A DNA stretch of 64,000 bases from Deltaproteobacteria bacterium (GTDB lineage Bacteria > Desulfobacterota > DSM-4660 > Desulfatiglandales > Desulfatiglandaceae), in NCBI GenBank assembly GCA_019307945.1, contig JAFDIS010000001.1:124001-188000 (forward strand). Reading direction: 5' to 3'. The notes beneath the pieces are model-generated. The model saw only the letters and a list, made by a program, of their open reading frames with translations. It did no database searches and was not told the DNA's origin. Shown here in pieces: positions 10,434 to 23,442 of this stretch (position 1 is the stretch's first letter; every line of letters starts with the position of its first letter). A program made the translations under genes and the position numbers.

Positions 10434-10683
10434 CGGAACCACCCCTTCTTGGAAAAATCATTTGGACAGGGAACCTCATTGAACACCCTGGGCGCGCCCC
10501 GAAGCGGAGCCCCGCCCAGGAATCCTTCCCCGCGACGCAGACAAGGTAACGGTGCTCCTGCACATTTGCAAGCCGATTGTGGCTCCCCCGAATGGATTGA
10601 CACCCGCCACCCTTTCCATTAACCTTCCATGGATAATAAGGAACAAGCGGGGTTTCAAATTTTCAAAGAGAGGTCATCCTGCC

Positions 10684-11388
10684 ATGAAGAACGCGACGCT
10701 TTTCTTTTTTTGCCTGTTTTTAATCTTTCCAGCCTCACAAAACGCAGATGCCGACGAGGTGATCAAAGGGCATTATTGCTACACTTATGGAGACAGCGAA
10801 AGCCTGCGCGAGGCCAAGGCGTTGACGAGGACTCTGGCCGTACGGGACGCGATTGAATCTTACAAGGTGTTTGTCGAAACCGCCAGTACTGTGAACAATT
10901 TCGCACTGACCAATGATCTGGTTCAGATCATCAGCTCCGGTTATCTGAAAAACGTTAAGGTCCTGGAGCAGACCGTGAAGGGCAGGACCATCTGCATGAC
11001 GGTCCAGGCCGATGTAAATCCCGCCGAGATGGCGAAGGTGGTCAGAAAGGTGGCCAAGGAAAGGGCCGATCAGGTGGAGGCCCTCGGGGTGGATAACAAC
11101 GGATGCCTGAAGATCCTCAAGGTGAAAAAAAAGGACCAGGAGGTCAAGGTGGTGGTGAAGGTACTGAAGCGGACGGGCGCGCTGGACACCGCTTTCGAAC
11201 AAAACCAAAAACCTTGCTTCCGGGTGGGCATCGACTTCATGGATGAAGATGGAGACCCCATGAGCGGAGATTCGCAGTTCATTCATACCTCCAGGTCCGA
11301 AATGCTTCCCGGGGAGATCATCGCGGTCACATTTGAACTGCCGTGGGGGGCAAAAAGCTATAAGGCGTGGCTGCCCAAAGGTGAATGA
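10684..11388 (+). CDS. Secreted protein with LPP20/FlgT-N-like domain
   Basis: A 234-residue exported protein. The ATG at 10684 opens a signal peptide (about 1 to 22) and follows AGAGAGGT by 8 to 9 nt; the frame is open further upstream but without a start of comparable quality. The mature N-terminal half (about 24 to 130) has the pattern of LPP20 / FlgT N-terminal domains: an A-x-x-x-A-R-T-x-A-V-R-DAI helix, a turn with NNFALTNDLVQIISSGYLKNV, then V-x-x-x-x-T-x-x-V-x-A-DV. The C-terminal half is strand-rich with LPGEIIAVTFELPWG, like a small beta-sandwich. No lipobox cysteine is seen. It lies 340 bp before the Rnf operon, which has its own promoter, so a link is not implied. Function unknown. 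Confidence 0.65.
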   Translation: MKNATLFFFCLFLIFPASQNADADEVIKGHYCYTYGDSESLREAKALTRTLAVRDAIESYKVFVETASTVNNFALTNDLVQIISSGYLKNVKVLEQTVKGRTICMTVQADVNPAEMAKVVRKVAKERADQVEALGVDNNGCLKILKVKKKDQEVKVVVKVLKRTGALDTAFEQNQKPCFRVGIDFMDEDGDPMSGDSQFIHTSRSEMLPGEIIAVTFELPWGAKSYKAWLPKGE

Positions 11389-11727: not shown

Positions 11728-13068
11728 ATGAAAACAATCAGAGGGCTTCGAGTGCCCGGCCTCCAGGATGATGTGTCGCCGGCGGGATTCAGGCATCTAC
11801 CGGTGCCGGAAAGGGTTGTGCTTCCTCTCGAATTTTCCCTCGGCAAGGTGAATCCGGTGGTTGAGCCGGGCCAGCAAATCCGCGCCGGGGAGTATGTGGG
11901 CAGGGACGAAAACCAAATGATCCCACCGGTGCGTGCCTCCGTCTCAGGTGTGGTGACCGAAATCACTCCCTGGCCTTCGGCCGACGGCCAAAAGCTCCTG
12001 TCCGTGGTGATCGAGGCAAACGGCGACGAGGAGGTGGTGCGGCTGCCCCTGAACGGTAACGGCGAATCAAAGCCGGAATCACTGCTCAGACGAATCGCTG
12101 AGGCCGGGATTCGTGAGGTGGATGCCTATGCCTGGCCCCTTGCCGTGAGGCTGGCGCAACCGTCCCTCACCCCGCCGATCCTGCTGCCCTTCGCCCCGGC
12201 CTTGAGGAAACCCGTCCGGTATTTGATCATCAACGGGATGGATCGACAACCCGGTGTGAGTGTGCGAAGGAACGCGATCCTGGCAGAGGAAAAGGAACTG
12301 CTGGAGTCCGTTCCTCTCCTGAAACAAATCACGGCAGCCGAGACCACCCTCATTACCATCTACAAGGATCAAAAACTTCCCGCGGATTTCGAGCGTAAAG
12401 TCTCATCCCTTGGTGCAGAACTGCTCAAATGCCCCCGGACATACCCGCTCGCCCTCAAGCAAGGGCTCATTCCTTATGTGACGGGAGAAAAACTGCCCGG
12501 GCCCAACGACGATGCCCGGAGCGTGGGGGCCGTCATGCTAGATGTGACCACCGCGCAAAGAATCGCAGCGGCCTGCAAGGAAGGCTACCCGGCGGTGGAG
12601 ACGTCGGTGGAGATCATCGAACCCGCTCGAGGGGCCACCACCCATGTCAAGGTACGGGAAGGAACGCTTTTGGAAGATCTGCTTGCTCAGCTCCCCGATC
12701 GGCCCCAGAACCCGGCGAAAACGATTATCGGGGGGCCCTTTCTGGGCTATGCCCAGTATCAGTTTCGTATACCTCTCACCCAGCAGACGGACTCGGTGGT
12801 TTTCCAGAGCAAGGATGAATTGACCCATTTCGTCAATGCGCCTTGTATGAATTGCGGATTCTGCGTGCGCCATTGCCCTATGGGGCTCATGCCGGGCGAT
12901 CTGAGCCGTCTGTGCGAATACGGCCATTTTGAAGCAGCGGAAAAGGCAGGCCTTTTCCATTGTATCGAATGCGGGATCTGCAGCTATGTATGCCCGGCCC
13001 AGCGGCCCATGGTGCAGTTGCTTCGTTTTGGTAAAAGCGAAATGCTTGCCGTTCAGGAAGCAAGTTAA
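11728..13068 (+). CDS. rnfC: Rnf complex subunit RnfC (NADH/ferredoxin-side Fe-S flavoprotein)
   Basis: Cytoplasmic-face subunit of the ion-pumping ferredoxin:NAD+ oxidoreductase; known RnfC proteins bind NAD(H) and FMN. This one has 446 residues. An N-terminal lipoyl-like barrel with PPVRASVSGVVTEI (about 66 to 80) is followed by the Rossmann-like central region and a SLBB-type segment. Two [4Fe-4S] ferredoxin motifs lie near the C-terminus: C373, C376, C379, C383 and C412, C415, C418, C422. There is no long C-terminal repeat tail of the E. coli RsxC kind. It is the first gene of the operon, with rnfD starting 12 bp later. The gene order C-D-G-E-A-B matches that of Acetobacterium and many anaerobes. 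Confidence 0.95.
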   Translation: MKTIRGLRVPGLQDDVSPAGFRHLPVPERVVLPLEFSLGKVNPVVEPGQQIRAGEYVGRDENQMIPPVRASVSGVVTEITPWPSADGQKLLSVVIEANGDEEVVRLPLNGNGESKPESLLRRIAEAGIREVDAYAWPLAVRLAQPSLTPPILLPFAPALRKPVRYLIINGMDRQPGVSVRRNAILAEEKELLESVPLLKQITAAETTLITIYKDQKLPADFERKVSSLGAELLKCPRTYPLALKQGLIPYVTGEKLPGPNDDARSVGAVMLDVTTAQRIAAACKEGYPAVETSVEIIEPARGATTHVKVREGTLLEDLLAQLPDRPQNPAKTIIGGPFLGYAQYQFRIPLTQQTDSVVFQSKDELTHFVNAPCMNCGFCVRHCPMGLMPGDLSRLCEYGHFEAAEKAGLFHCIECGICSYVCPAQRPMVQLLRFGKSEMLAVQEAS

Positions 13069-13080
13069 AGGGAAGCGACG

Positions 13081-14046
13081 ATGAAACATCCCGAACTGAC
13101 AGTCTCCGTATCACCCCATATCCATTCGGGATATACGGTAGCTAGAATGATGTACGAAAACGCGGGCGCCCTTATCCCCGTGGCCCTTGCAGGGTGGTTC
13201 TTTTTCGGCTGGCCCGCCTTGAAAATCCTGGCTCTTTCAGCAGGCACGGCCCTTTTGGTGGAATGGGGCTGGGAAAAGCTATTCGGTCCCCCAGCAAATA
13301 TCAGGGACGGAAGCGCCCTGCTCACGGGACTTTTACTGGGCTGTATCCTGACCACGGAAGTCCCCTGGTGGATTCCGATCCTGGGGTCGCTCGTGGCCAT
13401 TACTGTGGGGCGCCACGCCTTCGGAGGAATGGGCAATCACCCGTTCAGCTCCGTGCTTGTGGGATGGGCCTTTCTGGAAATCAGTTACAAGGAAATCCTG
13501 GAGACTTACCCACTGGCGGAACCTCGTTTCTTGCTGGAAGCCAGCGAATTTTTTTCGGACCCGCCACTCATCGCCATGAAGGATGACCTGGAGTCGATCC
13601 TGGAAGTTCCATGGTCCGAACTCTTCTTCGGAAACGTCCCGGGCACCCTGGGAACGGTGTGTGTACTGGCGATCCTGCTGGGAGGGGCCTACCTTCTATA
13701 CCGCCGGATCATCACCTGGCACATCCCCCTGTCGTTCATCTTTTCCGCCTGGCTCTTTGCCTTGATCATGTGGCAGGTGGACCCTGAGGTCTATGCACCT
13801 CCCACTTTCCACATCCTGTCCGGGTGGATGATGTTTGGCGCGTTTTTCCTGGCCACGGAAAAAGGAACCGCTCCCGTCACCCCTTTGGGGATGATCTTTT
13901 ACGGAATCGGTTGCGGTGTACTCACCATCATCATCAGGACCTGGGGAATATATACGGAGGGTGTTCCGTTCGCCATACTGCTTATGAACGGGGCGACCCC
14001 GCTGCTGGATCGTATCAAACCCGGGACTGCAGGGAGGTCGAGATAA
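13081..14046 (+). CDS. rnfD: Rnf complex membrane subunit RnfD, without the usual flavinylation motif
   Basis: Integral membrane subunit of 321 residues with about eight to ten hydrophobic segments, related to NqrB. It has the family marks SPHIHSGYT near the start, RDGSALLTGLLLG (about 79 to 91) and GGMGNHPFSSVLVGWAF (about 117 to 133). Characterised RnfD proteins carry a covalent FMN on the Thr of an S/D-GAT motif in the loop after the last of these. Here that loop (about 140 to 195) reads LLEASEFFSDPPLIAMKDD and similar, with no GAT. A lone NGATP occurs instead close to the C-terminus (about 304), where other members have a different sequence. Identity is secure from order and similarity; the cofactor content is uncertain. 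Confidence 0.93.
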   Translation: MKHPELTVSVSPHIHSGYTVARMMYENAGALIPVALAGWFFFGWPALKILALSAGTALLVEWGWEKLFGPPANIRDGSALLTGLLLGCILTTEVPWWIPILGSLVAITVGRHAFGGMGNHPFSSVLVGWAFLEISYKEILETYPLAEPRFLLEASEFFSDPPLIAMKDDLESILEVPWSELFFGNVPGTLGTVCVLAILLGGAYLLYRRIITWHIPLSFIFSAWLFALIMWQVDPEVYAPPTFHILSGWMMFGAFFLATEKGTAPVTPLGMIFYGIGCGVLTIIIRTWGIYTEGVPFAILLMNGATPLLDRIKPGTAGRSR

Positions 14047-14047
14047 A

Positions 14048-14632
14048 TTGCGTGATTTGATCAAAATGGTGGTCGTACTGACCGTCATCTGCGCGTGCTC
14101 CGCTCTGGTGCTCTCCTTTGCCAACCAGGCGACGCGCGAACAACGGGAATACCAGGTGCTCAAGTACGTCAAGGAGCCTTCCATCAAAGCGGTGTTGACC
14201 GGTTATGACAACGACCCCATCAAGGACCGCGTCACATTGAAGATGGGGACGGACAAGAAGGGCAAACCGATCCGGAAAAATATCTTCCCCGCCAAGAAAG
14301 GCGGGAAGGTGATCGCGCTCGCCTATGGGTCAGCCGCTACGGGTTATCACGGTCTGATCGAGGTCATGGTGGGAATAGACATCAACGGCAAGATCACCGG
14401 TGTCAGCATTATGACCCATACCGAGACCCCTGGGCTCGGAGCCCGGGTGGTGGAACCCGCCTTCACGGGACAATTCAAAGGGCTGGTATTATCCGACGCG
14501 CTGAAGGTCAAAAAGGACGGCGGAAAAATCGATTCCGTCAGCGGTGCGACCTTTTCCAGCCGGGGTGTTGTTACGGCGGTCCGACAGGCCCTTGAGTCCT
14601 TCTCCAAGATCAAGAAGGAGGTCATCTCATGA
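14048..14632 (+). CDS. rnfG: Rnf complex subunit RnfG (covalent-FMN subunit)
   Basis: Periplasm-facing subunit of 194 residues: one N-terminal membrane helix (about 5 to 25) and an FMN-binding domain. The flavinylation site DSVSGATFSSRGV is present, with T168 expected to carry FMN by a phosphoester bond added by ApbE; I see no apbE in the window. HTETPGLGARV (about 124 to 134) is the second family motif. The start is TTG at 14048, two bases after the rnfD stop codon and about 10 nt after GGGAGG; no ATG or GTG in frame lies nearby. The 3' end overlaps rnfE by four bases (ATGA), which suggests translational coupling. Confidence 0.95.
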   Translation: MRDLIKMVVVLTVICACSALVLSFANQATREQREYQVLKYVKEPSIKAVLTGYDNDPIKDRVTLKMGTDKKGKPIRKNIFPAKKGGKVIALAYGSAATGYHGLIEVMVGIDINGKITGVSIMTHTETPGLGARVVEPAFTGQFKGLVLSDALKVKKDGGKIDSVSGATFSSRGVVTAVRQALESFSKIKKEVIS

Positions 14633-15234
14633 GCGTCGCCAGGGAGTTCACCAAGGGTCTCTGGGATGAAATCCCCCCATTCCGGCTGGTCCTTGGCCTT
14701 TGCCCCACGCTGGCGGTCACAACGGCCGCACAAAACGGCATGGGAATGGGCCTTGCCACCACGTTTGTTCTTCTGGGTTCCAACGTCCTCATATCGTTGC
14801 TGAGAAATGTGATTCCCAAAAAGGTGCGCATCGCGGCCTACATCGTGGTGATCGCCAGCTTCGTGGTCATCGTGGAATTGTCCATGCAGGCCTATTTCTA
14901 TCCACTGTACAAGGTGCTGGGGATCTTTATCCCCCTGATCGTGGTAAATTGCATCATCCTGGGCAGGGCCGAGGCCTTTGCCTCCAAGAACAAACTGTTG
15001 CCCTCCATAGCCGACGGACTGGGAATCGGCCTTGGGTTCACATTGTCGCTCACCTTCCTGGGGGCGGTCAGGGAATTAATCGGCGCAGGGACCTTGTTCG
15101 GCCGGTACGTGATGTGGGAGTCCTTCCAACCGCTCTCCATCATGGTCAAGGCCCCCGGCGCATTCGTCTGCCTAGGGTTGATCCTCTGCCTCATGAACTG
15201 GATCGGGGCCATGCAAAAAAGAAGGCAGGGATAG
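14629..15234 (+). CDS. rnfE: Rnf complex membrane subunit RnfE
   Basis: Integral membrane protein of 201 residues and six predicted helices, paired in the membrane with RnfA (the two are homologous and inverted, as NqrD and NqrE are). The family opening FTKGLWDEIPPFRLVLGLCPTLAV and the middle segment FIPLIVVNCIILGRAEAFAS are present; the cysteine in GLCPTLAV (about 25) and the one in VVNCIILG (about 109) match those that bind the intramembrane [2Fe-2S] cluster in structures of Rnf and Nqr. The start overlaps the rnfG stop. A GC-rich hairpin at 15234-15254 follows the stop codon, without a T-run. Confidence 0.96.
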   Translation: MSVAREFTKGLWDEIPPFRLVLGLCPTLAVTTAAQNGMGMGLATTFVLLGSNVLISLLRNVIPKKVRIAAYIVVIASFVVIVELSMQAYFYPLYKVLGIFIPLIVVNCIILGRAEAFASKNKLLPSIADGLGIGLGFTLSLTFLGAVRELIGAGTLFGRYVMWESFQPLSIMVKAPGAFVCLGLILCLMNWIGAMQKRRQG

Positions 15235-15298: not shown

Positions 15299-15877
15299 AT
15301 GTCCGAATACCTGTTGCTTCTGGTCAGCGCAGTATTTGTGAACAACATCATTTTGGCCCGATACTTGGGCAATTGTCCGTTCCTGGGCGTCTCGAACCGA
15401 CTCGACACGGCCGTCGGGATGAGCATGGCCGTGGTATTTGTCATCACCCTGGCCAGTGCGGCCACGTGGATCGTTCAGACCTATGTCCTGACGCCTTTTG
15501 ACCTGGAATATCTGCAAACCATAGCTTTCATCCTGATCATAGCGACCCTCGTACAACTGGTGGAGATGTTCCTGCAGAAATCCATACCAACACTCTACAG
15601 GGCGCTGGGCATATTTCTGCCGCTTATCACCACCAATTGCGCCGTGCTGGGCGTGGCCGTGCTGGCCATCCAGAATGAATATGGTTTCGTCAAGACCATA
15701 TTTTTCGCTTTTGTCTCCAGTGTGGGCTACGGACTGGCGCTCATATTGCTGACCGGAATTCGGGAGCGATTGAATGTGGCGCCCATCCCGGTCCACCTGA
15801 AGGGGACTTCCATCGGACTCATCACGGTAGGGCTCTTGGCCCTTGCGTTCCTGGGTTTCGCTGGGATGGTCCATTGA
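15299..15877 (+). CDS. rnfA: Rnf complex membrane subunit RnfA
   Basis: Integral membrane protein of 192 residues with six helices, partner of RnfE. It has VNNIILARYLGNCPFLGVS near the start (cysteine about 25) and FLPLITTNCAVLGVAVL in the middle (cysteine about 112), the two cysteines that share the membrane [2Fe-2S] cluster with those of RnfE in known structures. It starts 64 bp after rnfE, the largest gap in the operon, and is followed by rnfB after 31 bp. Nothing is unusual in length or sequence. Confidence 0.96.
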   Translation: MSEYLLLLVSAVFVNNIILARYLGNCPFLGVSNRLDTAVGMSMAVVFVITLASAATWIVQTYVLTPFDLEYLQTIAFILIIATLVQLVEMFLQKSIPTLYRALGIFLPLITTNCAVLGVAVLAIQNEYGFVKTIFFAFVSSVGYGLALILLTGIRERLNVAPIPVHLKGTSIGLITVGLLALAFLGFAGMVH

Positions 15878-15908: not shown

Positions 15909-17954
15909 ATGCTCACAGCCATACTAGCCATAGGAGGCATGGGCCTGGTGGCGGGCATCGGCCTCGCCCTCGCTTCCAAGATCTTTTACGTGTATGTGGA
16001 CCCGATCGTGGTGGCCGTGGAAGAGGCCCTTCCCGGTGCCAATTGCGGGGGATGCGGATTCCCAGGCTGCAGCGGTGCGGCCGCAGCCATCGCCAAGGGA
16101 GATGCGCCCCCCAATATCTGTGTGGCGGGAGGCCCCTCGACCCATGCGGCGGTGGGGGAAATCATGGGAGTGGCCGTCATGGAGACCGAACCCGAATTCG
16201 CCCTGCCCGGGTGCAGCTACGGCTTCCACAAGGCGGACCTGAAGTTCCTCTATGACGGCTTCAATGACTGCAGAGCGGCATTGCTCCTGGACGGCGGTTC
16301 CAAGGTCTGTCCCATCGGGTGTCTCGGTCTCGGGACCTGTGCGAGGGCCTGTCCTTTCGGCGCCATCACCATGGGTGAGGATAATCTACCCGTGGTGAAC
16401 AAGAACCTGTGCACGGGATGCGGCACCTGCGAGCGCGTCTGCCCCAAGCATATCATCACCCTTACCTCCAATTCCAGGCGTATCCAGCGGGAATATACCA
16501 CGGAGCAATGCACGGCGCCCTGTCAAAGGGCTTGCCCCGCCGGCATCGACATCCCCGCTTACATACACGAGATAGCACTCGGCAACTACGAAGACGCAAT
16601 TCGCATTATCAAAGAATCCAACCCGTTTCTTAACGTGTGCGGTCGGATCTGCGTGGAACCCTGCGAGTTGGAATGCCGTCGCAACCTGGTAGACGAGCCG
16701 GTGGCCATCAACAACCTCAAGCGCTTTGTGGCTGATTATGAACGCAATTCCAAAAAGCGCATTCAGATCCCCAGGGCCCCCGAATCAGGCAAACAGGTGG
16801 CGGTGATAGGAGGGGGCGCAGAGGGGTTGACCTCCGCCTATTTTCTCAACCGCCTGGGCCACGATGTAAGATTGTATGAGTCCACGGAGAGCTTGGGCGG
16901 CCTGCTGCGAGCGGGCCTGCCGGCATCACGTCTTCCAAGGGATGTATTGGAATGGGAGATCGAGGGCATTCTGGCCGTGGGAATCGAAACTCAGACCGGG
17001 AAGGCCCTGGGACGGGATCTCACCCTTTCCTCCCTGTTCAAAGAAGGCTTTTCCGCTGTACTTGTGGCGATCGGCGGATGGGATACGTTCCTTTCCCAAG
17101 GTCGGCCCCAAGAAGCCCCTCTTCCCGGGATCCATCTCCTGGTGGACTATCTCCTGCGACATGAAGCGGGGTCAGGAAAGGCTCCTGGAGAACATGTGGT
17201 CATCGTAGGAGGGGGCGCAACCGCCCTGACGGCCGCCCATGCGTGCCTTGCCGGAGGCGCGCGGTCCGCCGCGGTGGTCACCAGGACTTCTCCGACCGAT
17301 GCTCTTTTCTCGGAGCAAGAAATCAAGACAGCGCAAGAGGCGGGAATCACTTTTTATCATGAAACGGCTCTCACCCGGATGATGGGTGAGGGAGACGCCT
17401 TGAAGCAGGTGGAACTCACCTCCATGAAAGGTGAAGGGGGCCAGAGCACGATCATATCCGCCGATACTCTGCTCGTGGGGGCTGGAAGATTTCCTGAATT
17501 GATCTATGTACCGAGGGAAATGGACGAGGAACGGCAGGAAGACACCGGAATCGCCTGGGAGACGGTGCTGCCCTACGCCGGACCCTTTTCCACCACGGAC
17601 ATCGGCCTTTTCAGGCCCGGAGAGGCAATAGGAGACTACAAGGCGGTGGTGGAGGCCATAGGAGCCGGGAGACGGGCGGCCAATTCCGCACATCGTCATC
17701 TTACCGGTGCCCCGGTTTCCCCACCCGAGGGCCTGATCCGGAGGGGAACACAGGTACTCAGCCTGACGGCCGTAGAATCGGTGGCCAAGGTTCCCCGGGA
17801 GAAGATGCCGGAGGTCCCGGAAGAGACGCGGATTGCGGATCCGGACGCAGAGATCGCCCTGGGCTACTCGGAAGCACAGGCCACGAAGGAAGCTTCCCGA
17901 TGTCTTCAGTGCGGCCTCATCTGCTATCGTCGGGAGGAAGGGGGGCTTCACTAG
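15909..17954 (+). CDS. rnfB: RnfB fused to a GltD/NfnB-like FAD-NAD(P) oxidoreductase
   Basis: A 681-residue fusion; ordinary RnfB has 190 to 330. Residues 1 to 25 form a membrane anchor. C46, C49, C54 and C71 make the N-terminal Fe-S motif of RnfB. C134, C138, C144, C148 and C168, C171, C174, C178 make two ferredoxin-type clusters. From about 195 the protein turns into the beta subunit of glutamate synthase / NfnB type: cysteines at 201, 205, 209 and again at 244, 248, 252, 256, an FAD loop (VAVIGGGAEGL, about 297) with ESTESLGGLLRAGLP, a second nucleotide fold (VVIVGGGATAL, about 430), a GD-x-x-x-x-x-x-x-AIGAGRRAA flavin segment (about 575), and a last CLQCGLIC. It probably feeds electrons between NAD(P)H and the Rnf ferredoxin chain; that is inference. 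Confidence 0.93.
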   Translation: MLTAILAIGGMGLVAGIGLALASKIFYVYVDPIVVAVEEALPGANCGGCGFPGCSGAAAAIAKGDAPPNICVAGGPSTHAAVGEIMGVAVMETEPEFALPGCSYGFHKADLKFLYDGFNDCRAALLLDGGSKVCPIGCLGLGTCARACPFGAITMGEDNLPVVNKNLCTGCGTCERVCPKHIITLTSNSRRIQREYTTEQCTAPCQRACPAGIDIPAYIHEIALGNYEDAIRIIKESNPFLNVCGRICVEPCELECRRNLVDEPVAINNLKRFVADYERNSKKRIQIPRAPESGKQVAVIGGGAEGLTSAYFLNRLGHDVRLYESTESLGGLLRAGLPASRLPRDVLEWEIEGILAVGIETQTGKALGRDLTLSSLFKEGFSAVLVAIGGWDTFLSQGRPQEAPLPGIHLLVDYLLRHEAGSGKAPGEHVVIVGGGATALTAAHACLAGGARSAAVVTRTSPTDALFSEQEIKTAQEAGITFYHETALTRMMGEGDALKQVELTSMKGEGGQSTIISADTLLVGAGRFPELIYVPREMDEERQEDTGIAWETVLPYAGPFSTTDIGLFRPGEAIGDYKAVVEAIGAGRRAANSAHRHLTGAPVSPPEGLIRRGTQVLSLTAVESVAKVPREKMPEVPEETRIADPDAEIALGYSEAQATKEASRCLQCGLICYRREEGGLH

Positions 17955-18432
17955 ACAGGATCCGGGTCATCCTGGGCTGATAGGCGAGGCCCTTTCGGAC
18001 CCGACGATCCAGCCGCCGGAGAACCAGGTAGCTTCCCACCAGGGCCCCGGCACCACTGACTACCGGCACAAAGGGACGGTGGCTGAAAGCACTGCCTACA
18101 GCGGCTCCCAGGACCAGGGCCACCACGGGGACAAAATAAACGAGTGCAGAAAGCTTGAGCAAAGACCGCGTGGGCACGCTGATCTCCACCGTATCGCCCA
18201 CGCGTGCTGCTAGGTCGTTGCGGATCTCCACGAGCATATCTCTTCCGTCCAGAGACTCACAAGAGTGTCGAGAATCGCAGGACGCGCAACAGGCGCTTTT
18301 CCGGATGCGAACCAACGCCCGGTCCATGATCACCTTCTCGACCACCCCCGCTTCGGTGAGAACGGGGGGCTCATCGGGCTGAAACGCCCCCTCTCCCTTA
18401 GGTCCCGTGCCCTTGAGTTGTTCAGACGCCAT
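17917..18432 (-). CDS. rseC: RseC/SoxR-reducer family membrane protein
   Basis: A 171-residue membrane protein. The ATG at 18432 is chosen because AAAGGAG lies 6 nt upstream. A soluble N-terminal part carries the cysteine cluster C48, C49, C52, C58 (ACCASCDSRHSC), as in RseC; an OB-like segment VGDTVEISVPTR follows, then two membrane helices (about 92 to 112 and 120 to 138) and a basic tail. In E. coli RseC works with the Rsx (Rnf-like) complex to keep SoxR reduced. Here the gene is convergent with rnfB and the two coding ends overlap by 38 bp, so they are not co-transcribed, but the pairing with Rnf is still suggestive. No soxR is seen. Confidence 0.88.
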   Translation of the reverse strand: MASEQLKGTGPKGEGAFQPDEPPVLTEAGVVEKVIMDRALVRIRKSACCASCDSRHSCESLDGRDMLVEIRNDLAARVGDTVEISVPTRSLLKLSALVYFVPVVALVLGAAVGSAFSHRPFVPVVSGAGALVGSYLVLRRLDRRVRKGLAYQPRMTRILSSEAPLPPDDSR

Positions 18433-18600
18433 CGGACTCCTTTCCGGGGAATGCCCTTTATTCAATTAAGGGCTGAAGGGCGCACCGTCCTGGGAGCCTC
18501 GCCCCCGGTTCCACTCCCGCGCTTGGAACCATAGGTGTGAGGAGGGCGATACGCCGACTTATGACACTCCCGAAATCCCATTAGGAGAAAACGGAAAAGG

Positions 18601-19834: not shown

Positions 19835-21637
19835 TCACCCGGCATCTCCCATGGGAACGTCTCTTGTGTTTCGCAGGGCCCTGAATCTCAGTTTGCGCCA
19901 CCTCTTCGAGGGATTGAGCAGCCTTTGCCGTTCCCGCCCGCTCAAAAGGCGCATACCCGGGACCGCCGGGGGGGCGGGACGCGTCAAGTCCAGGTCGGGC
20001 GTTGTTCCATCCATCCATCCCAGACCCGCCGCAGAACGACTCAGATGGCAGCTCATGCAGGAACGCCCCGCCGGGGAGACGGTGTGGGGCACATAAGGAG
20101 AAAAGGCCCACCCCTTTGACGTGAAATCACCGCGTATGGGGATGATACCGTCCAGGGCCGCATAACCCGCCTCGTCCACGTAAGACACTATGAACTGGTA
20201 AAGCGGCCTGACTATGCTGAAACGACCCTCATGATCCACACCGAGGGGCATCAGCTCCCACCTGCGATACCGCCATCCCAGGGACCAGGCGCCCTTTTTC
20301 AAGGTCCATGAAACCCGGTCCCTGGTGGCCGGCTGGAGGGGCTGGCGCATTCTTGATACCTCCAGCAGGACCTTTTCCACCACGGGATCTCCCTGCGCCT
20401 CCAGACCAAGCCATTTCAATGGATCGAGCCGATCTTCGCGGATGACGCTCAAGCCGTAGTCCTGAAAAGACCACTGAGCGTGGCAGGCGCTGCATCGGAC
20501 CCGCTCATGCTCCATCACCCCGTGGGCCACCACGTCCGCGTCGAACAGGGGCAGCCTGTGCAGGCGCTTCGCGCCCCTGGTTCGAAATCGAAACTCCGAT
20601 CCCCCGGCCACGACGCCCGGGATGGAAGGGTCCGGGCGTGCCCCCCTGAAGCCTCCGTGGCATCCCGAACAGGAAGTCTTCGGTACGGCCATCTGGTATC
20701 CGTAAACCTTTCCGTCTCCCATGACATCCGCCTTGCGGTGGCAGTCCACGCACCACAGGCCCCTTTCAGCGTGAATGTCTACGGCAAGGTGGTGGTAATC
20801 CAGGCCGTAAATCCTCTTTGAGGTCCCAGAAGCCCCCACGGGAGAACGATATCGCTCACTGAAATCATGCTGAAACAGTCCCATGTAATCCGCACCAACA
20901 TGATTCTGATTGTGACAGCGGAGGCACTGATCGTTGGGTATGGGCGACCGGAACACATGGCGGGCGGGATAGCCTGCCTTTTCCCGGTCCACGGCCGTGT
21001 CACTTCCACGGTAGCGTCCGTCGTCCTCATAGGGGACATGGCAGGCGGCACAACCGGAAGCACGGTAAAGGCCATCTCCCGTTGATCCCTCCGTGTGGAT
21101 ATGGCACCTCAGACATCGCCGCCTCAGGAAATCGTCCACGAGCTGGGCCGGATTTTCAGGATAGGCCATCGGGTCCGGCTCAGGCAGGGGCGCCAGGGGA
21201 CCGCTCAGACCGTAACGGGGCGGAGAAGCCTTTTCCTGGGCCCCCCAGAGATAGCGCGTCTGATTGATGATGCCTGCCACGGTACCGTGGAGTCCCTTTT
21301 CCACGATTCCGATCTCCTGCTCGTGGCAGGGCATACAAAAAGTGCGGACCCACCTGGGATCGGAGGGGTTCCGGACCACCTTGCGGTGGCCGTCCAACCA
21401 GCTGAGTGATCGATGCGCAGGCTGCAGGTGGCAGACCCCGCACTCGAAGTCATGATCAGGACCCATGGATTCGATCCGCGCATGGCATGAAAGGCATCGC
21501 CGATCCATGCGCGCGTCACGCACCTCCCCCCCGGCCCCGGTCGCCATAAAGAAACACACTGCGAAAACCGCCCACAGGGCCCCAAGCCGGTTCTGGCGGG
21601 CGCAAGCCCTTTTCATCGTGGAGCCTATCGAAGGCAC
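19835..21637 (-). CDS. Multihaem c-type cytochrome, 10 haem sites
   Basis: An exported protein of 600 residues. The GTG at 21637 is used because GGGAGG lies 7 nt before it; this start overlaps the previous cytochrome by 13 bp. A signal peptide covers about 8 to 38. Ten CxxCH motifs are seen: CLSCH, CGVCH, CMPCH, CLRCH, CAACH, CLRCH, CVDCH, CSGCH, CSACH and CMSCH. Nine lie in the first two thirds; a 130-residue haem-free, strand-rich stretch precedes the last. The block VDIHAERGLWCVDCH...VMGDGKVYG matches ADVHSRKADLDCIDCH...VMGDGVRHD of the upstream neighbour, so the two arose by duplication. A role in periplasmic electron transfer is inferred; no quinol-oxidising membrane partner is adjacent. 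Confidence 0.92.
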   Translation of the reverse strand: MPSIGSTMKRACARQNRLGALWAVFAVCFFMATGAGGEVRDARMDRRCLSCHARIESMGPDHDFECGVCHLQPAHRSLSWLDGHRKVVRNPSDPRWVRTFCMPCHEQEIGIVEKGLHGTVAGIINQTRYLWGAQEKASPPRYGLSGPLAPLPEPDPMAYPENPAQLVDDFLRRRCLRCHIHTEGSTGDGLYRASGCAACHVPYEDDGRYRGSDTAVDREKAGYPARHVFRSPIPNDQCLRCHNQNHVGADYMGLFQHDFSERYRSPVGASGTSKRIYGLDYHHLAVDIHAERGLWCVDCHRKADVMGDGKVYGYQMAVPKTSCSGCHGGFRGARPDPSIPGVVAGGSEFRFRTRGAKRLHRLPLFDADVVAHGVMEHERVRCSACHAQWSFQDYGLSVIREDRLDPLKWLGLEAQGDPVVEKVLLEVSRMRQPLQPATRDRVSWTLKKGAWSLGWRYRRWELMPLGVDHEGRFSIVRPLYQFIVSYVDEAGYAALDGIIPIRGDFTSKGWAFSPYVPHTVSPAGRSCMSCHLSRSAAGLGWMDGTTPDLDLTRPAPPAVPGMRLLSGRERQRLLNPSKRWRKLRFRALRNTRDVPMGDAG

Positions 21638-23442
21638 GGCAAGTCCTCCCCTCCCGCAAAACGACTCTTGCTCCGGGGAAAATCCCGGTAGATCGGATCG
21701 TCATAGCGCCGGTGGCACCCGGCGCATGCTCCCGCATCCAGGATGCGGCGGATTTCGGCATCGTCGAAGGGCCTCGGGTCTCCCGCAGCGCTTGCCACGC
21801 GGTTGCCTCTGCCCATGGCCGTAAATCCGTCCAGGGGAACTGACAGATTCAGACCCGAGCCTTTCGACCCGTAGGTGGGACGAAGAGAGGGACGGTGGCC
21901 CTTTCGGTGGAGGATTCCGCTTCCGAGTCCCAGCACCTTAGGATCACCGTGGCATTCGAGGCAGTCGCGAGACTTTTTGGAAGTGGTGTGAGGATCAAAG
22001 GCACCCAGGCTCAAGACCTGAAACCTGCGATCCGGCCGGGGCGACCCTTGTTCGTCAAAGCAGGAAAAAAAGACCTGACATGGTGCCACGGGATAGATCC
22101 GTTCAGGGCTCCTCACACCAAGTGCCGGCTTGGAAAACCTCATGAAGGATCGGGTTTCCTTCCACCTTCCCCGTATCTGTCCGCCGGTCAGCCAGTCGCG
22201 CTGGAATTCGTCCAGTCGATAGGCCAGATGGCACCCGTAGCATTGCGGCATCCAGGCACTGTGACAGGCCTGGCAGGAGACTCTTTCATGCCCGGGCAAT
22301 CCATGGTGTGGGGCTTCCATCCGGGAGGGATCCATCTCGAAGGGCTTTCCGTCCCTTTTACGATATAGAATTAGTTTGCCCGCTTCCTGACGGAGGTTGT
22401 ATACGGGCGTGCCCTTCTTGGTCCATCCCACGGGGGAGCCGTGGTTTGGAGGAATTTTCCTGTTGAGGGCCGTGAGCCTCCGGGCCTGATCGGCCTGAGC
22501 CCCCGCCGTTTTCATTTCAGGCAGATGGCACGCCTCGCAGGTGATATCCACCTGGGACACCATCTTATCATGCCGAACACCGTCCCCCATGACCCCTGTG
22601 GCGGTGTGACAATCGATACAGTCGAGGTCTGCTTTGCGCGAATGAACATCTGCGGGCAGTTCCAGAAAAAACCGCCTCCCGCTGAGCCTTCTTCGGCTCA
22701 GTTCCCCTCCTTCATATGGGGTTCCGTAGCCGGCCGACTCGAATCGCCCGAAATAGGATAGGCCGATCCGAGCGGAACGATTGTGGCACTTCACGCAGTT
22801 TTCAGAAGGAATCCGCGTCGTGATGGAGGGATGGCGAAGGGTTACACCATGTTGAACGACTTGGGCGCCTGATCCTCGGAGTTCCGGGGCATCGGGCACA
22901 TGACAATCACTGCACCCCCCCCCCCGAAGGCCCACCTCGCCGGGGCGATCCCCGCGCGGTTTCCAGAGGTGGCAGCCCCCGCACATCTTACGAAAATAAT
23001 CTTCCCCGAGGCCGTGGGGCTCCCACCTTCCCAGCAGATCCGTGATCTCCTTGCCGGAAATGCCCGAAGCTCCCGGCCAGTGATTCCCCAGAGCCGCCAG
23101 GATCCCCCGGTTGGTGGCCATAACGCTGTTTTTCACACGGTCCGCAACGCCAGCGTGACACAGGGGCTTTCCGCAGGTTTGCCCCACCACCCTCAAGTCC
23201 CCGGGGTTCTTTACCAGGGCCACATGCGCCCGTTCCTTTTCATTGGAATATGCATTACCCAGGTGGCAGGTATGGCACCCGAAGGCCTCCACGGGATGTG
23301 AAGGATCGGGATCGGTGGTCTCCTCATGGCAAAAAATGCAACCTTCCCGGGGGGGGACCGCGGGGATCTTTCTGGAACGCTCCTTGGCGACCACAAGAAT
23401 AGCCAGGAGCACCAGGGAAAGCATGGCTAGAGTTTTTTTCAT
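21625..23442 (-). CDS. Multihaem c-type cytochrome, 11 CxxCH plus one CX4CH
   Basis: A 605-residue exported protein. The N-terminus is MKKTLAMLSLVLLAILVVAKERSR in outline: a basic start and a helix with no clear cleavage site, so it may stay membrane-anchored. Haem motifs in order: CIFCH, CHTCH, C-GKPL-CH (a four-residue spacer), CGGCH, CSDCH, CVKCH, CIDCH, CEACH, CQACH, CYGCH, CLECH and CAGCH. CX4CH sites are known in tetrahaem cytochrome c3 and in NrfH-related proteins and are matured by ordinary system I or II machinery. It begins 27 bp after merR on the same strand and overlaps the 10-haem gene, suggesting one transcript. I see no strong ribosome-binding site before its ATG. Confidence 0.92.
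   Translation of the reverse strand: MKKTLAMLSLVLLAILVVAKERSRKIPAVPPREGCIFCHEETTDPDPSHPVEAFGCHTCHLGNAYSNEKERAHVALVKNPGDLRVVGQTCGKPLCHAGVADRVKNSVMATNRGILAALGNHWPGASGISGKEITDLLGRWEPHGLGEDYFRKMCGGCHLWKPRGDRPGEVGLRGGGCSDCHVPDAPELRGSGAQVVQHGVTLRHPSITTRIPSENCVKCHNRSARIGLSYFGRFESAGYGTPYEGGELSRRRLSGRRFFLELPADVHSRKADLDCIDCHTATGVMGDGVRHDKMVSQVDITCEACHLPEMKTAGAQADQARRLTALNRKIPPNHGSPVGWTKKGTPVYNLRQEAGKLILYRKRDGKPFEMDPSRMEAPHHGLPGHERVSCQACHSAWMPQCYGCHLAYRLDEFQRDWLTGGQIRGRWKETRSFMRFSKPALGVRSPERIYPVAPCQVFFSCFDEQGSPRPDRRFQVLSLGAFDPHTTSKKSRDCLECHGDPKVLGLGSGILHRKGHRPSLRPTYGSKGSGLNLSVPLDGFTAMGRGNRVASAAGDPRPFDDAEIRRILDAGACAGCHRRYDDPIYRDFPRSKSRFAGGEDLPCLR

What the first reader, a model, noticed from the sequence alone, without database searches (positions are those of the whole stretch)
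15909..17954. RnfB fused to a complete GltD/NfnB-like flavin module
Characterised Rnf complexes have RnfB proteins of 190 to 330 residues that end after the ferredoxin clusters. Here the same chain goes on with two Fe-S cysteine groups, an FAD site, a second dinucleotide fold and a terminal CLQCG motif. The fusion could tie NADPH or a bifurcating reaction to the membrane pump, giving an Rnf that links ferredoxin, NAD+ and NADPH. With about seven possible cluster sites this would be an unusually long wire.
Basis: partly seen in the sequence, partly recalled or inferred. Interest (0 to 1): 0.6.

Follow-up and report, generated by a model that had tools for sequence, protein, structure and literature searches.

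The report
RnfB with fused, altered GltD module
In this sulfate-reducing bacterium the electron-input protein of the Rnf ion pump really is fused to a flavin enzyme module, a type already on record as 'Rnf2'; but here the module lacks the usual NADPH-binding residues, and the rest of the pump has lost its NAD+-binding end, so it probably does not work as the textbook ferredoxin:NAD+ pump.

Summary
The fusion is real: one 681-aa frame, last gene of rnfCDGEAB, with RnfB residues 1-190 followed by a GltD/NfnB-type module. It is no assembly error: more than 60 full-length homologues occur in many Desulfobacterota families. It is not new: 'large RnfB' (Rnf2) was reported for Desulfobacula toluolica and is in the Desulfobacteraceae core genome.

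Three points change the interpretation. (1) Fused RnfBs form two clades. Clade I keeps FAD and NADPH motifs (18/21); clade II, which holds the window protein, keeps the FAD loop but not the NADPH motifs (0/46). (2) RnfC has lost the FMN/NADH motifs in all 54 Rnf2-type operons and keeps them in all 37 canonical ones. RnfD's covalent-FMN motif is gone too (0/51 against 33/33); RnfG keeps its own. (3) A multiheme cytochrome gene lies directly upstream of rnfC in 35/52 Rnf2-type and 0/34 canonical operons, though not in the window.

Most likely Rnf2 is an NAD+-independent Rnf that exchanges electrons between cytoplasmic carriers at RnfB and periplasmic cytochromes at RnfG, as proposed for Methanosarcina acetivorans. 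That is inference. A ferredoxin/NAD/NADPH link through this protein is not supported, nor is an 'unusually long wire'.

The parts
15909..17954 (+). rnfB-gltD fusion, 681 aa, clade II of fused RnfBs
   Evidence: AlphaFold2 pLDDT 81.7, pTM 0.82; VIA-align Z 30-32 to NfnA/StnA chains, 12.9 to A. woodii RnfB
15909..15983 (+). N-terminal membrane helix of RnfB (residues 1-25)
   Evidence: helix 2-25 in the model; solved RnfB alignment starts at residue 2-5
16029..16460 (+). RnfB FeS domain and ferredoxin clusters (residues 41-184); Cys invariant in 67 proteins except C121 (66/67)
16506..16751 (+). Fer4_20 / DPD-domain-II type double cluster of the GltD module (residues 200-281)
16809..16826 (+). 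FAD loop GGGAEG (301-306); E305 in 44/46 of clade II, A/G/S in clade I
17208..17240 (+). second dinucleotide loop (434-444) GGGATALTAAH; N, T, D of GGGNTAxD not conserved
17283..17294 (+). place of the RR[ST]R NADPH motif (459-462), here RTSP
17622..17636 (+). E572...D576, clade II replacement of the C-terminal GD FAD motif
17901..17924 (+). C-terminal CLQCGLIC (665-672)
11728..13068 (+). rnfC; both [4Fe-4S] Cys sets kept, FMN/NADH site lost
12112..12138 (+). place of the RnfC FMN glycine loop (VGLGGAxFP in solved RnfC), here REVDAYAWP
12232..12255 (+). place of the RnfC NGAECEPY motif, here NGMDRQPG
13081..14046 (+). rnfD; covalent-FMN motif replaced
13549..13569 (+). place of the RnfD flavinylation motif [ST]xATPL, here FFSDPPL
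   Evidence: FMN is bound to Thr153 of C. tetanomorphum RnfD (PMC9588780)
14048..14632 (+). rnfG with intact SGAT flavinylation motif; scores above cut-off of RnfG_DVU2794 (NF045876)
14629..15234 (+). rnfE
15299..15877 (+). rnfA; both conserved Cys present in 51/51 aligned RnfAs
17917..18465 (-). RseC/MucC-family gene, convergent
19835..21637 (-). 10-haem c-type cytochrome, candidate partner by proximity only
21625..23442 (-). 11-haem c-type cytochrome, candidate partner by proximity only

Best explanation
The window encodes an Rnf2-type complex whose NAD+ end is gone. Shown from sequence: RnfB carries a GltD-type module that keeps the FAD loop and its clusters but has lost the NADPH signature; RnfC keeps two [4Fe-4S] clusters but has lost the FMN/NADH site; RnfD has lost the covalent-FMN motif; RnfG, RnfA and RnfE keep theirs. 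Inferred: electrons pass between a cytoplasmic carrier (ferredoxin, or a protein docking on the FAD module) and RnfB, cross by the RnfA/E cluster to the RnfG FMN at the periplasmic face, and are exchanged there with multiheme c-type cytochromes instead of returning through RnfD and RnfC to NAD+. The complex would be a ferredoxin:periplasmic cytochrome oxidoreductase that pumps, or is driven by, ions, working like the Methanosarcina acetivorans Rnf. The clade II module would be a flavin/FeS docking or storage site on the input side, whereas clade I modules in other genomes could add NADPH as a donor.
For: RnfC GxGGAxFP and ECEP: 37/37 canonical, 0/49 Rnf2-type RnfCs in the tree set plus 0/5 in two further families; the label needs one change on the tree, on a branch with 100/99 support. 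RnfD FMN motif at the aligned site: 33/33 canonical, 0/51 Rnf2-type plus 0/5. RnfG SGAT-type motif kept. NADPH motifs 18/21 clade I, 0/46 clade II. Multiheme cytochrome gene directly upstream of rnfC: 35/52 Rnf2-type, 0/34 canonical. Window RnfG is in the D. vulgaris DVU2794 family. Precedent: M. acetivorans Rnf does not use NAD(P), is cotranscribed with a multiheme cytochrome, and RnfG is its proposed terminus (PMC4023990). Fd:NAD+ vesicle assays failed for D. alaskensis (PMC4841214).
Against: The window and its near relatives have no cytochrome gene directly upstream of rnfC; the two large cytochromes nearby are on the other strand and not always conserved. In D. alaskensis the co-transcribed decaheme cytochrome is dispensable for Rnf-dependent growth (PMC4215793). 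RnfC keeps both [4Fe-4S] clusters, which would have little purpose if electrons never reached it. Loss of a covalent anchor does not prove loss of FMN. Related sequences are not independent. No biochemistry.
Confidence: 0.45

Rival explanations
1. NQR-like relocation: the NAD(P)H site has moved from RnfC to the RnfB flavin module. NAD(P)H reduces FAD on RnfB, electrons go through RnfB clusters, RnfA/E and RnfG to another acceptor, with ion export, as NqrF does in NQR.
For: Loss of the RnfC site is tied to the Rnf2 lineage, which mostly has the fused RnfB. Clade I modules keep FAD and NADPH motifs. NQR evolved from Rnf by putting an NADH-oxidising flavoprotein in place of RnfB while NqrA lost its cofactors (PMC12174285).
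Against: Clade II, including the window, has 0/46 NADPH motifs, and some members have even lost the glycine loop (VHNG, VHDR). The window genome has only a clade II protein. Two families with the same RnfC loss have a short RnfB.
Confidence: 0.25
2. Relocated output: the GltD module sits at the RnfB-RnfC interface and takes electrons from the RnfC clusters, reducing NAD(P)+ in place of the lost RnfC flavin, so the complex remains a ferredoxin:NAD(P)+ pump.
For: RnfC keeps both clusters; in C. tetanomorphum a segment of RnfB forms the RnfC interface and parts of RnfB line the NAD+ cleft (PMC9588780); Rnf is needed for energy conservation in D. alaskensis (PMC4215793).
Against: The route to RnfC runs through the RnfD FMN, whose anchor motif is gone; clade II lacks the NADPH motifs.
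Confidence: 0.15
3. The clade II module is a redox-inactive remnant or docking scaffold, for example a partner of a second, clade I RnfB in genomes that have both; in the window it only stabilises the complex.
For: Ten genomes (G015, G032, G051, G057, G075, G095, G227, G250, G325, G332) have one RnfD but two fused RnfBs, three of them single-contig genomes; where both sequences were read, one is clade I-like and one clade II. The dinucleotide site drifts within clade II.
Against: Nearly all cluster Cys, the FAD loop, E324 and the new residues E305 and D576 stay conserved, so cofactor function appears to be under selection.
Confidence: 0.15

Closest known systems
Rnf2 / large-RnfB Rnf of Desulfobacula toluolica Tol2, Desulfococcus multivorans and Desulfobacteraceae (PMC5109826, PMC11887813)
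   Same: About 700-aa RnfB with an added nucleotide-binding module, RnfC without the NADH-oxidoreductase domain, sulfate-reducing host, complete rnf set
   Different: The accounts read here mention NAD+-binding sites on RnfB. They do not mention two clades with different NADPH motifs, loss of the RnfD FMN motif, or the tie to upstream cytochromes. Their supplements were not readable here.
Canonical Rnf of C. tetanomorphum (7zc6), A. woodii (9eri), A. vinelandii (8ahx)
   Same: Six subunits, RnfB N-terminal 190 residues, RnfA/E Cys, RnfG flavinylation motif
   Different: No GltD module; RnfC holds FMN and the NAD+ site; RnfD holds covalent FMN
Methanosarcina acetivorans Rnf with multiheme cytochrome c (PMC4023990)
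   Same: NAD(P)-independent (by assay there, suggested by motif loss here); RnfC keeps clusters; multiheme cytochrome in most Rnf2-type operons; RnfG as likely terminus
   Different: No GltD module reported; extra membrane subunit MA0665; archaeal; no cytochrome gene in the window operon itself
NfnA/StnA of bifurcating NfnABC and StnABC (9bov, 9n5u, 8oh5), NfnL, GltD
   Same: Fer4_20 plus two Rossmann domains, Z 30-32 for NfnA/StnA
   Different: Window module lacks the NADPH motifs, and no NfnS/NfnB-type partner gene was seen in the operon
NQR (NqrF/NqrA)
   Same: Flavin module on the input subunit; RnfC/NqrA homologue without flavin
   Different: NqrF is an FNR-type protein unrelated to GltD; here RnfC keeps its clusters and the RnfD FMN motif is lost, whereas NqrB keeps its FMN

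Membership tests
Rnf complex (rnfABCDGE) | All six subunits in one gene set | tested here: met
   RnfD, RnfG, RnfE, RnfA above curated cut-offs, RnfB above the TIGR01944 cut-off, RnfC 232.9 against 245.95 (just below)
Ferredoxin:NAD+ Rnf (canonical) | FMN/NADH site on RnfC | tested here: not met
Ferredoxin:NAD+ Rnf (canonical) | Covalent-FMN motif on RnfD | tested here: not met
Rnf2 (large-RnfB type of Desulfobacteraceae) | About 700-aa RnfB with added nucleotide-binding module and RnfC without NADH domain | tested here: met
   description from PMC5109826
GltD/NfnL/StnA NADPH-dependent oxidoreductase module | Fer4_20 and FAD GxGxxG | tested here: met
GltD/NfnL/StnA NADPH-dependent oxidoreductase module | NADPH motifs GGGNTAxD and RR[ST] | tested here: not met
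   0/46 in its clade; the window keeps GGG and one Arg, so weak binding is not excluded
Electron-bifurcating Nfn/Stn | Partner subunit with second flavin and [2Fe-2S] | tested here: inconclusive
   no such gene within the operon; a partner elsewhere was not sought
Cytochrome-coupled NAD-independent Rnf (M. acetivorans type) | Multiheme cytochrome in the rnf operon | tested here: not met
   absent directly upstream in the window, present in 35/52 relatives; two 10- and 11-heme genes lie about 2 kb 3' on the other strand
Cytochrome-coupled NAD-independent Rnf (M. acetivorans type) | No reaction with NAD(P) | not testable with these tools
   needs an assay

The most novel reading that the evidence does not exclude
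The whole Rnf2-type lineage of Desulfobacterota, usually described as ferredoxin:NAD+ oxidoreductase, is a single-origin NAD+-independent Rnf: it lost the RnfC NADH/FMN site and the RnfD FMN, passes electrons between cytoplasmic carriers and periplasmic multiheme cytochromes through RnfG, and carries exchangeable RnfB input modules (NADPH-competent clade I, NADPH-incompetent clade II), often two for one membrane core.
Probability: 0.35. Interest if true: 0.75.

Novelty: new member of a known kind. Interest (0 to 1): 0.48.

Why it matters
Rnf2 is reported as core to Desulfobacteraceae, main sulfate reducers of marine sediments, and as constitutively made (PMC11887813). Its reaction has not, to the extent of the papers read here, been measured, and models assign it ferredoxin:NAD+ activity. 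If the NAD+ end is absent, energy budgets for these organisms, and perhaps for Desulfovibrio-type Rnf, need revision. The question can be settled by one purification and assay.

Tried and rejected
Assembly chimera: rejected. Unusually long wire: rejected by cluster count. Strict rule 'RnfC site lost if and only if RnfB is fused': rejected, since families f43 and f23 have the lost RnfC with a 275-284 aa RnfB, and G132 and G192 (f43) also encode a separate ~600-aa ferredoxin-GltD protein. A single-sequence scan of genome contigs found nothing; the alignment scan did. AlphaFold2 of clade I from seven rows was poor (pLDDT 56) and was not used. Whole-chain rmsd to PDB chains is 14-16 A, so inter-domain placement in the model is not trusted. 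The one [ST]xATP[LM] regex hit in an Rnf2-type RnfD (L110) lies outside the aligned site; L148 has an offset SATDPL, and L096, L110, L111, L136 keep a Thr but not the Ala before it. The Tol2 paper itself and the supplements of PMC11887813 could not be read.

Full report
Observation. The frame 15909-17954 (+) is open for 681 codons and is the last gene of rnfC-D-G-E-A-B. Residues 1-190 are RnfB: membrane helix, FeS domain 41-72, ferredoxin clusters 138-184; solved RnfBs align to residues 2-193. Residues 199-673 are a GltD-type module: Fer4_20 200-281 and two Rossmann domains, closest to NfnA, StnA and NfnL chains (VIA-align Z 30-32 for NfnA/StnA). The AlphaFold2 model has mean pLDDT 81.7, with low confidence at 108-118, 128-136 and after 669.

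Not an artefact. In the window genome it is the only fused RnfB, and there is one RnfC and one RnfD. Full-length homologues are found in most of 60 relatives. In a phylum sample, 38 of 297 genomes matched at E <= 1e-95; a few of those hits start near residue 95 and include the separate, unfused protein of family f43. Named or partly named hosts include Desulfosarcina alkanivorans, Desulfocarbo indianensis, Desulfopila aestuarii and Desulfobacula and Desulfotignum MAGs. The window genome has dsrA, so it is of sulfate-reducer type.

Prior knowledge. D. toluolica was reported to have an Rnf with a large (about 700 aa) RnfB carrying NAD+-binding sites and an RnfC without the NADH domain; D. multivorans has this as Rnf2, seen by proteomics (PMC5109826). 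Rnf2 is in the Desulfobacteraceae core genome and constitutive in six strains (PMC11887813). So the fusion is known; its reaction is not established in the papers read.

The module. In 67 fused proteins the FAD loop GGGxxG and nearly all cluster Cys are invariant. The tree splits them into two clades. Clade I (21 rows) has GGGNTAxD in 18, RR[ST] in 18 and GD...G in 18. Clade II (46 rows, with the window) has none of the three in any row; it has E305 (44/46) and D576 (46/46) instead. FAD binding is therefore likely to remain; the NADPH signature is gone. The window keeps GGG and one Arg (R459), so weak nucleotide binding cannot be excluded; a sister group has lost the glycines.

The rest of the complex. 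Window RnfC aligns over its whole length to solved RnfC, but VGLGGATFP reads REVDAYAWP and NGAECEPY reads NGMDRQPG, while both [4Fe-4S] Cys sets remain. Across operons both motifs are present in 37 of 37 canonical RnfCs and absent in 49 of 49 Rnf2-type ones, plus five more from two other families. On the RnfC tree the label changes once, on a branch with support 100/99, so this is one lineage and not many independent events. RnfD: FMN is attached to Thr153 in C. tetanomorphum, with Glu185 next to the ring (PMC9588780). At the aligned site the FMN motif is present in 33 of 33 canonical and 0 of 51 Rnf2-type RnfDs, with near-misses noted under Tried and rejected; the GE[TMV]S motif is in 9/9 against 0/36. 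RnfG keeps SGAT or a close form.

Context. A gene with three or more CxxCH lies directly upstream of rnfC in 35 of 52 Rnf2-type and 0 of 34 canonical operons. It is absent in the window's own sublineage. The window has two 10- and 11-heme cytochromes at 19835-23442 on the other strand, also seen near the operon in L201 and L202 but not in L200. RnfG of the window and relatives scores at or near the cut-off of the D. vulgaris DVU2794 model (185-242 bits), canonical RnfG at most 143; this suggests that Desulfovibrio Rnf belongs to the same lineage, which was not tested by name.

Two modules, one core. Ten genomes have one RnfD but two fused RnfBs. In G032, a single-contig genome, a clade II copy sits in the operon and a clade I copy outside it, near ATP sulfurylase; in G332, also single-contig, the operon copy has the clade I motifs and the clade II copy stands alone. 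Families f43 and f23 have the Rnf2-type RnfC with a short RnfB; two f43 genomes carry a separate ferredoxin-GltD protein. The fusion is thus an addition to an already altered core, or was split again.

Mechanism. Shown: motif losses and retentions, lineage, gene neighbours. Inferred: the NAD+ end is not functional, and electrons leave or enter at RnfG through cytochromes, as proposed for M. acetivorans Rnf, which does not react with NAD(P) and is co-transcribed with a multiheme cytochrome (PMC4023990). A periplasmic cytochrome link has been suggested before for Desulfovibrio Rnf (PMC4287179). Against it: the decaheme cytochrome is dispensable in D. alaskensis (PMC4215793), and RnfC keeps its clusters. 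An NQR-like relocation of NAD(P)H to RnfB stays possible for clade I.

Verdict.

Noticed in passing
window 19835-23442 (-): Two adjacent c-type cytochromes with 10 and 11 CxxCH motifs between an M24 peptidase gene and pheT; similar pairs near the rnf operon in L201 and L202.
   Followed up: partly
L202, L203, L204, L205, L213-L215, L217-L219: Tetra- to octaheme cytochrome gene directly upstream of rnfC in many Rnf2-type operons.
   Followed up: yes
L255, L256: Stand-alone ~600-aa ferredoxin-GltD protein without membrane helix, alignable to fused RnfB from about residue 95, in genomes whose rnf operon has a short RnfB.
   Followed up: partly
L038 8995-11061 (G032): Second, clade I RnfB-GltD gene outside any rnf operon, near CoA-ligase and ATP sulfurylase genes.
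   Followed up: partly
window 10660-11388 (+): Protein with a signal-like N-terminus and no Pfam match, upstream of rnfC.
   Followed up: no
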